64,000 nt of DNA from Methanofollis sp. W23 (GTDB lineage Archaea; Halobacteriota; Methanomicrobia; Methanomicrobiales; Methanofollaceae), in assembly GCF_017875325.1 (NCBI RefSeq), contig NZ_JAGGMN010000001.1, forward strand, positions 2,190,140 to 2,254,139, in the 5' to 3' direction. The position numbers were made by a program, and so were the translations under genes. Shown here one piece after another: positions 9,745-13,974 of the stretch. A model generated the notes under the pieces. The model had not been told where the DNA came from, did not search any database, and saw only the letters and a list, made by a program, of their open reading frames with translations. Each line of letters starts with the position of its first letter. Within the stretch, counting starts at the first letter, position 1.

Positions 9745-9993
9745 TTACATGACGCCAAGCCTGCTGAGAATTTCCTCAGCGGCGTTTTCGTTCTCGAAGT
9801 TGATGATGGCCTTCTTCTGACCCTTCATTGTCATCATGGTCCTGATCGACTTGACCGGCTGTTCGAAGGCCTTCTCGACCTCACGCATGATCTGGTCTTT
9901 GGAAGCGCCCTGCTCGACGAGAACCTGGATCTTGTTCTCGTTCTCGAGCATCATCATCGCTTTTTCCGTCACATACGGATGCTTGAGCACCAT
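9745..9993 (-). CDS. rpl23: Large ribosomal subunit protein uL23 (L23)
   Basis: 50S tunnel-exit protein and docking site for SRP, 82 residues. It opens MVLKHPYVTEKAMMMLE and ends IINFENENAAEEILSRLGVM, with the conserved VKSIRTMMTMKGQKKA strand between. It abuts rpl4 with no spacer. Confidence 0.97.
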   Translation of the reverse strand: MVLKHPYVTEKAMMMLENENKIQVLVEQGASKDQIMREVEKAFEQPVKSIRTMMTMKGQKKAIINFENENAAEEILSRLGVM

Positions 9994-10743
9994 TCACTCC
10001 ACCTCTTCCATCAGTTTGAGTGCGCTCTCAGACCAGATCGTCAGCCTGCCCGCCTGGGTACCAGGAGCGAGAAGCTCGACATCAAGGTCATAGACTGAGA
10101 TCGCATCGACACCAGCAAGGTTGGAGGCGGCACGAAGTGGTTCATCACCGGTCACGATCAGCACGCTCTTGCGCTGCTTGTACCGGCGCCCACGCATCTT
10201 ACCCCGTCCTGCACGGACCTTCTTGCTCTCTTTTGCCCGTTCGACATCGGCATAGAGCCCAAGGGCCTGAAGGGCGTTGATGATATCAGAAGTCTTCTGG
10301 AGCGCTTCGAAGGATTCGTCGACGACAAACGGGACGTCACCTTCAAACCGGTGACCACGGGCGGCGACGAGTTCCGGCACCATGGTAGCGGCGACTGCGG
10401 AACGCAGGGCCAACCATCTCTCCTGTTTGTTGATCTTTCTCTTCAAAACCTTTGCAGCCTTTGGCGGGTGGGCCGCACGGCCGCCCTTGGCCTGCGGGAT
10501 CTTGGCGGCTCTTGAGCCGTTCTTGATCCTGGGCAATTGTGCTACGCCGCGTCCTGACCCCCAGCTCTCGGCTGAACTCCTGATCCCGGCAAACGGGTTG
10601 GTGCCATGGGGCTGAAGCCTGATGCTCTGGGCAGCCAGTACCGCCTTCTTGATCAGGTCAGGCCGGTAGAGTTCATCGAAGACAACCGGGAGTTCAATCT
10701 CACGGACGACTGACCCGTCGGTTGATCTGACATTTGCTTTCAT
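9994..10743 (-). CDS. rpl4: Large ribosomal subunit protein uL4 (L4)
   Basis: 50S protein with an extended loop into the exit tunnel, 249 residues of the archaeal/eukaryotic L4 type. The loop is visible as WGSGRGVAQLPRIKNGSRAAK, and the C-terminal domain has KSVLIVTGDEPLRAASNLAGV. It lies between rpl3 and rpl23 with seven or fewer bases to either neighbour. Confidence 0.97.
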   Translation of the reverse strand: MKANVRSTDGSVVREIELPVVFDELYRPDLIKKAVLAAQSIRLQPHGTNPFAGIRSSAESWGSGRGVAQLPRIKNGSRAAKIPQAKGGRAAHPPKAAKVLKRKINKQERWLALRSAVAATMVPELVAARGHRFEGDVPFVVDESFEALQKTSDIINALQALGLYADVERAKESKKVRAGRGKMRGRRYKQRKSVLIVTGDEPLRAASNLAGVDAISVYDLDVELLAPGTQAGRLTIWSESALKLMEEVE

Positions 10744-10750
10744 CCGTTAT

Positions 10751-11764
10751 TCACCCCTGCTTGCTCTCCAGGCTGACATAGTTCACGGCCGGTGTCCTCA
10801 CTTCGTGTTCGCCCTGCCTGATTGCCGGGCGGATGCGCACGAGACGCTTGACCGGACCGGGGACTGAGCCCTTGACCATTATATACGAGTTCCTGACCAG
10901 TCCGTAGTGGAGGAATCCACCCTTGGGCACGATTTCAGTGCCGTCGGCGCTGGCCTTGAGGATCCGCTTGTTAAATTCGGTCCTCTGCTGATACCCCTTC
11001 TGGCCCATCTGCGGGACCTGCCACCTGACGTGGTGAGGATGCCACGGACCAAGGTTGCCGATGTGGCGCTTCTTGCCGCCGCGGGAGTGTTTTCCCTTCC
11101 TGACCTGGATACCCCAGCGCTTGACCGGACCCTCGGTACCCTTCCCCTTGGTAATAGCGGTGACGTCGATGTACTGCCCTTCTGTAACCAGAGAGAGCGG
11201 GTCGACCTCGGTGCCAAGGAGGGACGTCGCAAGGTTGAGGCGGTCTTCCATGGACCCGCCATCGATCCTGGTCTCCATCAGTTCTGGCACTTTCTTCGGG
11301 ACACCTGAGAGGGCCGCCGGCTGCGTGTACATCAGGGCAAAGATCTCGGTGACTTTCCCTGCCGCCACGGCCTCCTGGATAGCCTTGAGGGCCGCATCGC
11401 GGTCGTGTTCTTTTGGCAGCGTCATCCTCTTTGCGAGGGCGGCGTCAAGGTCTTCAGCCCAGACCTCAGTCAGCGGGTGTTTTCCATAAGAGTCGGCGAC
11501 ATAGGCGCGCACAGCCGCAACCTTCATGACCGGGACTTCGATGATGGTGACCGGCACCATGATCTCGCGCCCTTCGGTCGGGCTGTTCTTGTGGTCGTCA
11601 ACGCCGACGACGTGCGTCATACCAACCTTATACCCTGCAATCGCCTGCAGCATGGGTTCTCCTTCGTGCCGAGGCCAGGACTGGTACTTTGGTACCTGGC
11701 TCTTTGCCCGCTTGCGCGGACTGAAGGCAAGGGAACCCCTGCGCGGTCTGTGTATGTTCGGCAT
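10751..11764 (-). CDS. rpl3: Large ribosomal subunit protein uL3 (L3), first gene of the operon
   Basis: 50S assembly protein close to the peptidyl-transferase centre, 337 residues, the archaeal long form. It opens [21 protein letters not shown] and carries the key loop [21 protein letters not shown]. It heads the operon that runs down to secY. No TATA box lies close upstream; the nearest convincing one is about 600 bases away, across a heavily structured leader. Confidence 0.97.
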
Positions 11765-12342
11765 GTTCTAATCAATCCTCTGCGTTTGGTTCTCTCCGAG
11801 CTTGCAACTCTGTCACATCCCTGCCTTCTTTGAAGGGCAGGTATGCCAGATTCCCGCCGGGATTGCACAAACATCGCGAACCGGATCCCCACCAATTCTG
11901 TTCCCCTGAGGGGGAACGGACGATCGGGCGCGCTCTCCGCACAACAGGATCTTCTCCTGTTGCGGTGGTGTCGGGAGCGATGTGCCTTGGTGTGGTCTCC
12001 AATGTCTAGAGTCCATTCCGGTGTGCTCCGGAATTACCTCGTCTCGCGAAGAGATCCTGATCGTGTGCACGCCGGGTCAAAACCCGGACCGGGCTCGTCT
12101 GCACTGACGGAGGCCCATATGCAGTGATCAGATCCAGCGTCTGTCAGCTCCTTGGGACTGGGATGAGTCCTTCTCGGTCATGCCCCTATACCGGGGCAAC
12201 CGGGGCACTGCAGTCTGACCCAGAGTTTGGGGTGCAGGCCTGTTGTACTATCCGGCAAACGGTTACAGAATGGCCACTTCTACCACCATATGGCCATTGT
12301 TCTGTGTCCGGTTGCGCTGGATACCATCGTCTCCGGTTCTGT
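11765..12342 (-). ncRNA. Putative structured 5' leader (or separate RNA) of the ribosomal operon
   Basis: Non-coding stretch between the rpl3 start and a strong BRE/TATA, about 575 nt. In the minus-strand transcript I see these helices: an extended hairpin at 12249-12323 (TATCC/GGATA base, GCAACCGG/CCGTTTGC with one mismatch, ACAGA/TCTGT and ATGGCCA/TGGCCAT); CCGGGT/ACCCGG near 12075; TTCCGG/CCGGAA near 12025; ACAGGA/TCCTGT near 11950; GTTCCCC/GGGGAAC near 11900; a CCTGCC/GGCAGG stem near 11830; and GGACT/AGTCC near 12165. Open frames through it are short and lack the GC-rich third positions of neighbouring genes. I did not find the conserved RNase P (GAGGAAAGUCC-type) or SRP helix-8 motifs, so the function is unknown. 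Confidence 0.55.
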
Positions 12343-12351
12343 AATTATTCA

Positions 12352-12361
12352 TCAAATTTGA
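12352..12361. promoter_or_regulatory. Palindrome TCAAATTTGA at the ribosomal promoter (possible operator)
   Basis: Perfect 10-base palindrome between the TATA box and the predicted start site of the ribosomal leader. The same 10 bases form the core of the longer palindrome in front of mtd. A regulator bound here would block polymerase. No direct evidence of binding exists. Confidence 0.35.
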
Positions 12362-12376
12362 ATATAAAGGTTTGTG
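12361..12376 (-). promoter_or_regulatory. BRE/TATA promoter of the ribosomal operon leader
   Basis: On the minus strand the sequence reads CACAAACC followed by TTTATATT, an A-rich BRE plus a near-consensus archaeal TATA box. The transcript would start about 25 bases on, near 12340. It is the only convincing promoter upstream of rpl3. A 10-base palindrome, TCAAATTTGA, overlaps its downstream edge by one base. Confidence 0.65.
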
Positions 12377-12588
12377 ACCCCTGGGGGATCCATTCTCCTC
12401 TGGCATTGTCGGGAGCCAGGCACTTGTGGCAGGAGGGGAGAGAAGAGGGATCTTCTGGCCCCATACACATCCTCGTGATGTCCTCTAACCAGGGCGTGCC
12501 GCCGCCCCTGGGCGGTGAAGAGGGGAGGAAAAGGCGAGTGAGTCGCACACTCGTCCAGGAGATGTGAGGGATTTACAGGGCCGATCGT

Positions 12589-12993
12589 TCAGCTGAAGAA
12601 GAGATCCCCTTCCTGGTTGATGTAGACCTCGACGTCCTCCCTGACATAGCGCGCCCTGAACTTGCCAGGGTTGGATTCCTGGACGCGGTTGACCAGTTCG
12701 ATGGTATTGTACTTCACTTTAATACCATGTTTTTCCGCCTCCTGGAAGATCTCGGAGGCTGCTTCAATAAGGTCGGTCCCGGCCTTGATGGTGCAGAGAT
12801 GGTCTGAGTCAAGGGTGTACAGGAACTCAAGCGTCTCTCTTGCACGGCCAATATTTTCATATGCCGCCTTCTCGATGGTGCAGACATTCGCCTTGGAAGT
12901 CTGGATAATATCGGCGACCTGCTGCTGAGTGAGCCCCATCTTCCGGTACCGGAGTACTTCTTTCTGTCTGTCGGTGAGAAGCCCCTGTTTCAT
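12589..12993 (-). CDS. Tfx-family DNA-binding transcriptional regulator
   Basis: 134-residue protein of the Tfx family, first known from Methanothermobacter where it binds downstream of the fmdECB promoter (molybdenum formylmethanofuran dehydrogenase). Residues 1-50 form a helix-turn-helix: LTDRQKEVLRYRKMGLTQQQ, then VADIIQTSKANVCTIEKAAYENI. The C-terminal half is the Tfx-specific domain. It is divergent from mtd, so it may act on methanogenesis genes. A TTTATGAT box about 27 bases before the ATG suggests a leaderless or very short-leader transcript. Confidence 0.9.
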   Translation of the reverse strand: MKQGLLTDRQKEVLRYRKMGLTQQQVADIIQTSKANVCTIEKAAYENIGRARETLEFLYTLDSDHLCTIKAGTDLIEAASEIFQEAEKHGIKVKYNTIELVNRVQESNPGKFRARYVREDVEVYINQEGDLFFS

Positions 12994-13131: not shown

Positions 13132-13974
13132 ATGGTAGTTAAAGTAGGAATTGCCAAACTGGGTAACATTGCCAGTGGCGTAATGGCAGAGCTCCTCCTT
13201 GACGAGCGTGCGGACCGTGAGGACATGCAGACGTTCATGGCGACGAGCGGGACCAAGCTCCAGCCAGAGGACATCGACCGTGTCGTCACCACCATGAAGG
13301 AATGGGTGCCAGACTTCTGTATTGTCGTCTCCCCGAACGGTATCCTCCCCGGACCGACCGGCGCCCGTGAGCAGCTTGCTGAGGCAGGCATCCCGTGCAT
13401 CGTCATCACCGACGACATCACCGGGAAGAAGGACCAGTTCGCCGCCCTGAAGGAGAGCCAGTTCGGCTACATCATCATGAAGGCTGACTCGATGATCGGT
13501 GCTCGTCGCGAGTTCCTCGACCCTGTCGAGATGGCCGACTTCAACGGCAACCTCGTCAAGGTGCTCGCCCTCACCGGTGCCTTCCGCAAGCTCCAGCTTG
13601 AACTCGACAAGGTCATCGACCAGGTCAAGGAAGGGAAGAAGGGTGCCGACCTCGTGCTCCCGAAGCTTGTCATGAACTCCGACAAGGCTGTCGCCGGCGA
13701 GTTCTCGAACCCGTACGCCCTTGCAAAGGCCCGTGCGGCCTACGAGATCGCCCAGGCGGTTGCCGGGGTCAATGTCAAGGGTTGCTTCATGACCAAGGGC
13801 TTTGAGAACTACGTCCCGATCGTGGCGTCCGCCCACGAGATGATGCGCGAGGCCGCATATCTCTGTGACGAGGCCCGTGAGATCGAGAAGGCCGGCGACG
13901 GCATCATCCGCAAGCCGCACAAGAAGGATGGCGTCATCGTCTCCAAGACGGCGCTCATCTCCAAGCCTGAGTAA
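13132..13974 (+). CDS. mtd: F420-dependent methylenetetrahydromethanopterin dehydrogenase (Mtd)
   Basis: Cytoplasmic methanogenesis enzyme that reduces methenyl-H4MPT to methylene-H4MPT with F420H2. The 280 residues match the full Mtd length. It opens [20 protein letters not shown] and includes [16 protein letters not shown] and [20 protein letters not shown]. Mer, the next enzyme of the pathway, lies about 2 kb away but on the other strand. Strong codon bias (C/G-ending) fits high expression. The ATG has a GAGAGGTG ribosome site four bases away. Confidence 0.98.

What the first reader, a model, noticed from the sequence alone, without database searches (positions are those of the whole stretch)
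11765..12376. About 575 nt of highly folded leader in front of the ribosomal operon
Seen: the only good BRE/TATA upstream of rpl3 is at 12361-12376, and the DNA between holds at least seven strong hairpins, including a 75-nt extended one at 12249-12323. No credible frame crosses it. Known: bacterial S10 operons are controlled by L4 binding a leader; no equivalent is established to my knowledge for the archaeal operon. Inference: a cis-regulatory leader or a stable RNA processed from it.
Basis: partly seen in the sequence, partly recalled or inferred. Interest (0 to 1): 0.6.

Follow-up and report, generated by a model that had tools for sequence, protein, structure and literature searches.

The report
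Gene-fossil RNA leader before ribosomal operon
The long folded stretch in front of this archaeon's ribosomal-protein operon is a regulatory RNA that in related archaea lies inside a neighbouring methyltransferase gene, and here the RNA has outlived that gene.

Summary
A 576-nt leader runs from a conserved TATA box (12361-12368) to rpl3 (11764); it is unusually foldable (z -5.0), and no credible frame crosses it. It is neither RNase P nor SRP RNA.

Its core (12033-12181, minus strand) is a diverged homologue of Rfam RF03135, "L4-Archaeoglobi", a ribosomal-protein leader rated borderline by its discoverers. The window scores 29.2 bits, below the 34.5-bit cut-off. A covariance model built without Methanofollis finds the core at E 2e-18 as the only real hit in the window. 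That core is in 203 of 232 Methanomicrobiales genomes and covaries strongly.

The unexpected part is its origin. Outside this order, all 122 listed RF03135 hits lie inside the coding sequence of the SPOUT methyltransferase gene (PF02598), just before rpl3 where examined. Only 4 of 232 Methanomicrobiales keep that gene, again with the RNA inside it. In the others it has eroded, leaving two recognisable islands: promoter/5' UTR and the RNA. Where the gene survives, synonymous codons are most conserved over the RNA.

So this is a regulatory RNA nested in a protein gene that repeatedly outlived it. The methyltransferase therefore cannot be its necessary ligand. Feedback by L4 remains the best guess, untested.

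The parts
12361..12376 (-). Operon promoter: TATA element TTTATATT (12361-12368) with upstream BRE-like bases
   Evidence: Invariant TATA in 12 of 12 Methanofollis; aligns with the promoter of the intact methyltransferase gene in MTase-bearing relatives
11765..12340 (-). 576-nt leader of the rpl3-rpl4-rpl23-rpl2 operon, from the expected start site to the rpl3 start codon
   Evidence: Fold z -4.98; conserved in the genus. Start site inferred from the TATA box, not measured
12249..12323 (-). Extended 75-nt hairpin; seen only in Methanofollis among the leaders inspected; few double changes
   Evidence: other genera differ here
12033..12181 (-). Order-wide RNA core (models R1/R2): a 5' hairpin, then a four-helix element
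   Evidence: R2, built without Methanofollis, 81.3 bits, E 1.7e-18; R1 in 203 of 232 order genomes; covariation
12057..12131 (-). Segment matching Rfam RF03135 L4-Archaeoglobi, whole model 1-85
   Evidence: 29.2 bits, E 0.0021, gathering score 34.5
12015..12034 (-). 3' hairpin ATTCCGGAGCACACCGGAAT
   Evidence: 7 pairs, one with a change on both sides in 4 of 12 Methanofollis; like hairpin in 68 of 148 MTase-less leaders
11777..11780 (-). Shine-Dalgarno-like GAGG before rpl3 (GAGGATTGAT; similar in most loci of the order)
   Evidence: Sequence
10751..11764 (-). rpl3 (ribosomal protein L3), first gene of the operon
   Evidence: PF00297, E 8.9e-91
9994..10743 (-). rpl4 (ribosomal protein L4), the presumed ligand
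   Evidence: PF00573, E 7e-36
9745..9993 (-). rpl23
   Evidence: PF00276
9018..9734 (-). rpl2
   Evidence: PF03947, PF00181

Best explanation
The stretch is the 5' leader of the archaeal S10-type operon. Its core is a structured cis-regulatory RNA homologous to the L4-Archaeoglobi leader. Shown here: the RNA lies inside the coding sequence of a SPOUT RNA-methyltransferase gene (PF02598) in other lineages of the phylum; in most Methanomicrobiales, this one included, that gene has decayed, and the promoter/5' UTR and the RNA are the parts still recognisable. Inferred: the RNA senses a free ribosomal protein made by the operon, most likely L4, and binding lowers output of the rpl3-rpl4-rpl23-rpl2 message. 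About 270 nt separate the core from the rpl3 start, and in relatives the RNA sits inside a translated gene, so simple hiding of the rpl3 ribosome-binding site is less likely than premature stop of transcription or destabilised message. No terminator-like site was found in the leader, so this last step is open.
For: RF03135 match in the right place and strand; held-out model R2 hits 12 of 12 Methanofollis at 76-84 bits. R1 finds the RNA in 203 of 232 order genomes, 131 of 135 of the near-complete ones. Covariation on 97 MTase-less sequences: 89.8% of cells paired, 24 of 31 pairs with double changes, 0 of 500 shuffles as good; on the unfitted MAFFT alignment of 32: 81.4%, 19 of 31 pairs. PF02598 in 4 of 232 order genomes, and those 4 carry the RNA within it. 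All 122 listed RF03135 hits outside the order lie inside the PF02598 match. A profile of the intact gene hits 114 of 148 MTase-less leaders, almost only at promoter/5' UTR and RNA. Synonymous codon conservation is highest over the RNA in three separate groups.
Against: The window's own RF03135 score is below Rfam's cut-off, and RF03135 under strict filters misses all 12 Methanofollis. No 6-mer is conserved at 85% in the order alignment, so I could show no imitation of 23S rRNA. No terminator-like site in the leader. No expression, binding or transcript data were available. The L4 assignment rests on Eckert and Weinberg's analogy with bacteria ('Prior' basis, rated '?').
Confidence: 0.72

Rival explanations
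1. The structure reflects only the coding constraint of the methyltransferase; there is no functional RNA, and the Methanofollis stretch is a neutral pseudogene.
For: RF03135 hits outside the order all lie in coding sequence, where codon constraint can imitate RNA conservation; several strictly conserved bases match conserved residues such as WVDVG (protein printed).
Against: In genomes without the gene the element keeps covarying stems while the rest of the gene is unrecognisable; synonymous sites are also over-conserved over the RNA in coding genomes.
Confidence: 0.04
2. The RNA is a feedback leader whose ligand is another product of the operon (L3, L23 or L2), not L4.
For: rpl3 is the first gene, followed by rpl4, rpl23 and rpl2; Eckert and Weinberg warn that ligand guesses for multi-gene operons are uncertain.
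Against: L4 is the established ligand of a bacterial leader (stated; that it is the S10-operon leader is recalled).
Confidence: 0.25
3. The RNA was the methyltransferase's own feedback or substrate site and has another or residual role now.
For: Where both occur the RNA lies inside the enzyme's gene; the RNA-positive genomes listed outside the order also carry the gene.
Against: In the order 203 of 232 genomes have the RNA and only 4 the gene, with covariation kept.
Confidence: 0.06
4. The leader is processed into a stable trans-acting RNA.
For: Long, very stable fold with a genus-conserved 5' hairpin.
Against: Linkage to rpl3 in 97 of 99 loci given; no Rfam family matches other than the leader; RNase P and SRP lie elsewhere.
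Confidence: 0.08

Closest known systems
L4-Archaeoglobi ribosomal leader, Rfam RF03135 (Eckert and Weinberg 2020, PMC7247131)
   Same: Same place before rpl3-rpl4-rpl23-rpl2, same helix plan (P1 CUGA/UCAG, GGGY/GCCC helix, variable hairpin), whole-model match at 12057-12131
   Different: Window scores below the cut-off; the conserved element is about twice as long (5' hairpin, GGAUCUGA/UCAGGAUCU flanks, 3' hairpin); it is non-coding here and coding elsewhere; the paper lists it for Archaeoglobi only
Bacterial S10-operon leader bound by L4 (E. coli)
   Same: Leader of the homologous operon, likely the same ligand (recalled; a bacterial L4 leader is mentioned)
   Different: No structural likeness tested; not nested in a coding gene (recalled)
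Archaeal S15 and eL15 ribosomal leaders (same paper)
   Same: Archaeal autogenous leader candidates
   Different: Different operons and structures; Eckert and Weinberg report no meaningful similarity among their motifs except the S15 pair
Methyltrn_RNA_3, PF02598 SPOUT RNA methyltransferase gene
   Same: Its intact gene contains the RNA in relatives
   Different: No PF02598 match remains in Methanofollis

Membership tests
Rfam RF03135 L4-Archaeoglobi | Window sequence scores at or above the curated gathering score (34.5 bits) | tested here: not met
   29.2 bits, E 0.0021. I therefore call it a diverged homologue, not a listed member
Rfam RF03135 L4-Archaeoglobi | Same secondary structure over the whole model | tested here: met
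   Positions 1-85 of 85 matched; six positions are marked as non-standard pairs; the same helices in the minimum-energy fold
Rfam RF03135 L4-Archaeoglobi | Homology to sequences that pass the cut-off | tested here: met
   R2, built without Methanofollis or coding sequences, hits 12 of 12 Methanofollis and 4 of 4 MTase-bearing relatives; those four score 57.7-58.8 bits with RF03135
Rfam RF03135 L4-Archaeoglobi | Location upstream of the rplC-rplD operon | tested here: met
   the model matched 97 of 99 rpl3-upstream loci given
Rfam RF03135 L4-Archaeoglobi | Binds L4 and represses the operon | not testable with these tools
   No binding or expression data; predicted only in the source paper
Archaeal RNase P RNA RF00373 | Covariance-model match here | tested here: not met
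   No match in the leader; the gene is at G000:C1:1114136, outside the window
Archaeal SRP RNA RF01857 | Covariance-model match here | tested here: not met
   No match in the leader; best match at G000:C1:2474390, outside the window
PF02598 methyltransferase gene | Recognisable protein product | tested here: not met
   No PF02598 match in the whole genome; tblastn of two MTase proteins finds nothing in the window

The most novel reading that the evidence does not exclude
Across the Halobacteriota a ribosomal-protein feedback RNA is written inside the codons of the operon's first gene, a SPOUT RNA methyltransferase. In Methanomicrobiales that gene was lost several times, and each lineage examined kept the RNA, turning a protein gene into a purely regulatory leader. 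The nested RNA is thus more indispensable than the protein that carries it, and the losses are a natural experiment that separates RNA selection from protein selection.
Probability: 0.8. Interest if true: 0.72.

Novelty: new variant of a known kind. Interest (0 to 1): 0.62.

Why it matters
An archaeal L4 leader candidate rated borderline in 2020 gains strong covariation support from many genomes and a much wider range. It also gives a clear case of a regulatory RNA overlapping a protein gene and surviving that gene's loss, which shows how leaders can arise from genes and how codons can carry two messages. Haloferax volcanii has both the RNA match and the gene (controls), so the idea can be tested in a genetically tractable archaeon.

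Tried and rejected
RNase P and SRP: excluded. Whole-window Rfam at gathering thresholds shows only tRNAs, which would have hidden the leader; the E-value mode found it.

Imitation of 23S rRNA: the leader often has GGGCUGACAG and the genome's 23S has GGGGGUGACAG at about position 340, near the L4 site (recalled). No 6-mer is conserved at 85% in the order alignment, so I dropped it. Patterns first used to find the 23S gene failed; RF02540 found it.

Kink-turn in the GGGU-GGA-CGUU/AACG-A-GCCC loop: the order of G and A does not fit the consensus I recall; dropped. Conserved upstream reading frame (ATGAGGTTATCC in Methanoregula): absent in Methanoculleus. Long-range CCGAG/CUCGG pairing closing the Methanofollis leader: invariant, so no evidence for or against. 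Terminator in the leader: none; the only terminator-like site lies upstream of the promoter. A TATA plus GGAAGCC element was counted in 97 of 148 leaders against 22-23 in controls, but 0 of 12 Methanofollis fit that pattern.

Rows set aside: of 156 distinct upstream regions, 8 (MTase-bearing or outgroup) were left out of the 148. Core regexes or rescue patterns found 143 of those 148. R1 was run on 99 of the order's loci and on all 232 genomes. In the synonymous test 16 of 52 frames were chosen by length alone.

Full report
WHAT IS THERE. The window comes from a Methanofollis-like genome: named relatives of its rpl3 are Methanofollis, and 11 further genomes of the same genus code were compared. 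On the minus strand lie TATA TTTATATT (12368-12361), a 576-nt stretch without a credible gene, and then rpl3, rpl4, rpl23 and rpl2. The stretch folds far better than shuffles (z -4.98, 0 of 100). It is conserved in the genus with few double changes, and I saw no equivalent in the other genera shown.

KNOWN RNA OR NOT. At gathering thresholds Rfam gives only tRNAs. The permissive scan of 11700-12600 gives a single match, RF03135 L4-Archaeoglobi, over the whole model at 12131-12057, 29.2 bits, E 0.0021, cut-off 34.5. RNase P and SRP RNAs are elsewhere. RF03135 comes from Eckert and Weinberg 2020 (PMC7247131; I read the outline and sections 5, 7 and 12 and searched passages). They list it for Archaeoglobi, ligand L4 by analogy, rated '?' (borderline). 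Rfam 15 lists three additional covarying pairs for it (passage).

HOW WIDE. RF03135 matches 126 of 232 genomes of the order at E 0.001, 116 over the cut-off, but no Methanofollis under the strict filters used there. I built model R1 from 32 sequences without the methyltransferase gene, four of them Methanofollis. It finds 97 of 99 order loci given and 203 of 232 genomes, 131 of 135 of the near-complete ones. As a held-out test, R2 was built from 28 sequences with no Methanofollis. It finds 12 of 12 Methanofollis at 76-84 bits. In the 64-kb window it gives 12033-12181 at 81.3 bits and one noise hit of 8.5 bits.

COVARIATION. On the 97 matches (alignment fitted to the model): 89.8% of cells paired, 24 of 31 pairs with a change on both sides, 469 such cells against 138 in shuffles, 0 of 500; slid structures reach at most 132. 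On the MAFFT alignment of 32, not fitted: 81.4%, 19 of 31 pairs, 0 of 500 for four measures and 5 of 500 for the fifth. Three of the five P1 pairs never vary and say nothing. The Methanospirillum-like group has GUGA/UCAC for CUGA/UCAG (sequence). Against: the core alone does not fold better than shuffles (z -0.07).

THE METHYLTRANSFERASE. In an Archaeoglobus MAG (L123) and a Methanohalarchaeum MAG (L125) the DNA just before rpl3 is a gene of PF02598, a SPOUT RNA methyltransferase. Across the phylum RF03135 matches 166 of 294 genomes and PF02598 145 of 294. Of the RF03135 hits outside the order that one search lists, 122 of 122 lie within the PF02598 match, and 116 of 122 have a length of 1 mod 3 (the other six, all of one group, are 84 nt); in the order, 80 hits from MTase-less genomes spread over 42, 20 and 18 in the three classes. 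That spread is partly one genus with one length. Some genomes have the gene without an RNA match, for example G253, G302, G331, G354 and G360 (compare).

GENE LOSS, RNA KEPT. In the order PF02598 occurs in 4 of 232 genomes (2 of 135 near-complete), and in none of 12 Methanofollis. Those four carry the RNA inside the gene: R1 scores 122-127 bits there although trained on gene-less sequences only. Aligning the Methanofollis leader with these genes shows collinearity from the TATA box through the 5' UTR, a gap over the N-terminal half, then the RNA and the 3' hairpin. A DNA profile of the four genes (TATA at 199, start codon 258, RNA P1 627-722, 3' hairpin 743, stop 1095) hits 114 of 148 MTase-less leaders. 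Coverage is 76 loci around 200-225, 103-112 loci over 600-725, 0 loci from 350 to 500 and 0-1 from 800 on. The other 34 of 148 show no hit. On an rpl3 tree MTase-bearing and MTase-less species are mixed in two well-supported groups. A loss-only count gives 9 losses on the tree as found, and at least 6, 4 or 3 if forks under 80, 90 or 95% support are collapsed; family f6 is not on that tree, and some branches are long.

CODONS WITH TWO MESSAGES. In genomes that keep the gene I compared synonymous codon identity with expectation per amino acid. Over the RNA and elsewhere it is 1.15 and 0.96 (30 haloarchaea), 1.31 and 0.92 (18 others), 1.29 and 0.89 (4 Methanomicrobiales). Windows of equal width that reach the RNA value: 8 of 231, 8 of 152 and 5 of 177; in all three groups the best window starts within six columns of the RNA start. 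Windows overlap and species are related, so these are not probabilities. The same structure on 52 coding sequences has 19 of 31 pairs with double changes, again on a fitted alignment.

HOW IT WORKS. Shown: a conserved, structured, cis-linked RNA in a long leader, independent of the protein that once overlapped it. Inferred: feedback by a ribosomal protein of the operon. The methyltransferase is ruled out as a necessary ligand, since most of the order lacks it. L4 is the best guess by analogy. The last step (termination, decay or translation) is open: no terminator-like site lies in the leader, and the core ends about 270 nt before the start codon.

NOVELTY. The family is known; its spread, its extended core, its nesting in a protein gene and its survival of gene loss are the new points. 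Searches listed no paper that describes them, judging by titles and abstract starts; the supplement of PMC7247131 was not readable here and may mention coding overlap.

Noticed in passing
window 12589-12993 (-): TFX-family DNA-binding protein (PF14601) gene directly upstream of the operon promoter, same strand; a similar frame ends upstream of the leader in other Methanofollis.
   Followed up: partly
window 13132-13974 (+): mtd, methylene-tetrahydromethanopterin dehydrogenase (PF01993), divergent from the TFX gene.
   Followed up: partly
G273:C122:6144-6844: PF02598 match broken by a TAA and split in two in one genome of family f7: possibly another loss in progress outside the order.
   Followed up: no
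G100:C2:407764-407870 and G091:C52:3557-3663: Second, weaker RF03135 matches (32.6 and 30.0 bits, 107 nt) in two Methanoculleus-group genomes, away from their main match.
   Followed up: no
G224:C67:49564-49703: A second R1 match of 85.9 bits in one genome, on another contig than its rpl3; could be a duplicated leader or contamination.
   Followed up: no
L149, L143, L091, L059 leaders: GGAAGCCGATATGAGGTTATCC soon after the TATA box in Methanoregula-type leaders; could start a short upstream reading frame (MRLS...).
   Followed up: partly
window 12177-12173 with 11800-11796 (-): CCGAG at the core start can pair with CUCGG just before rpl3 in all 12 Methanofollis; invariant, so untested.
   Followed up: partly
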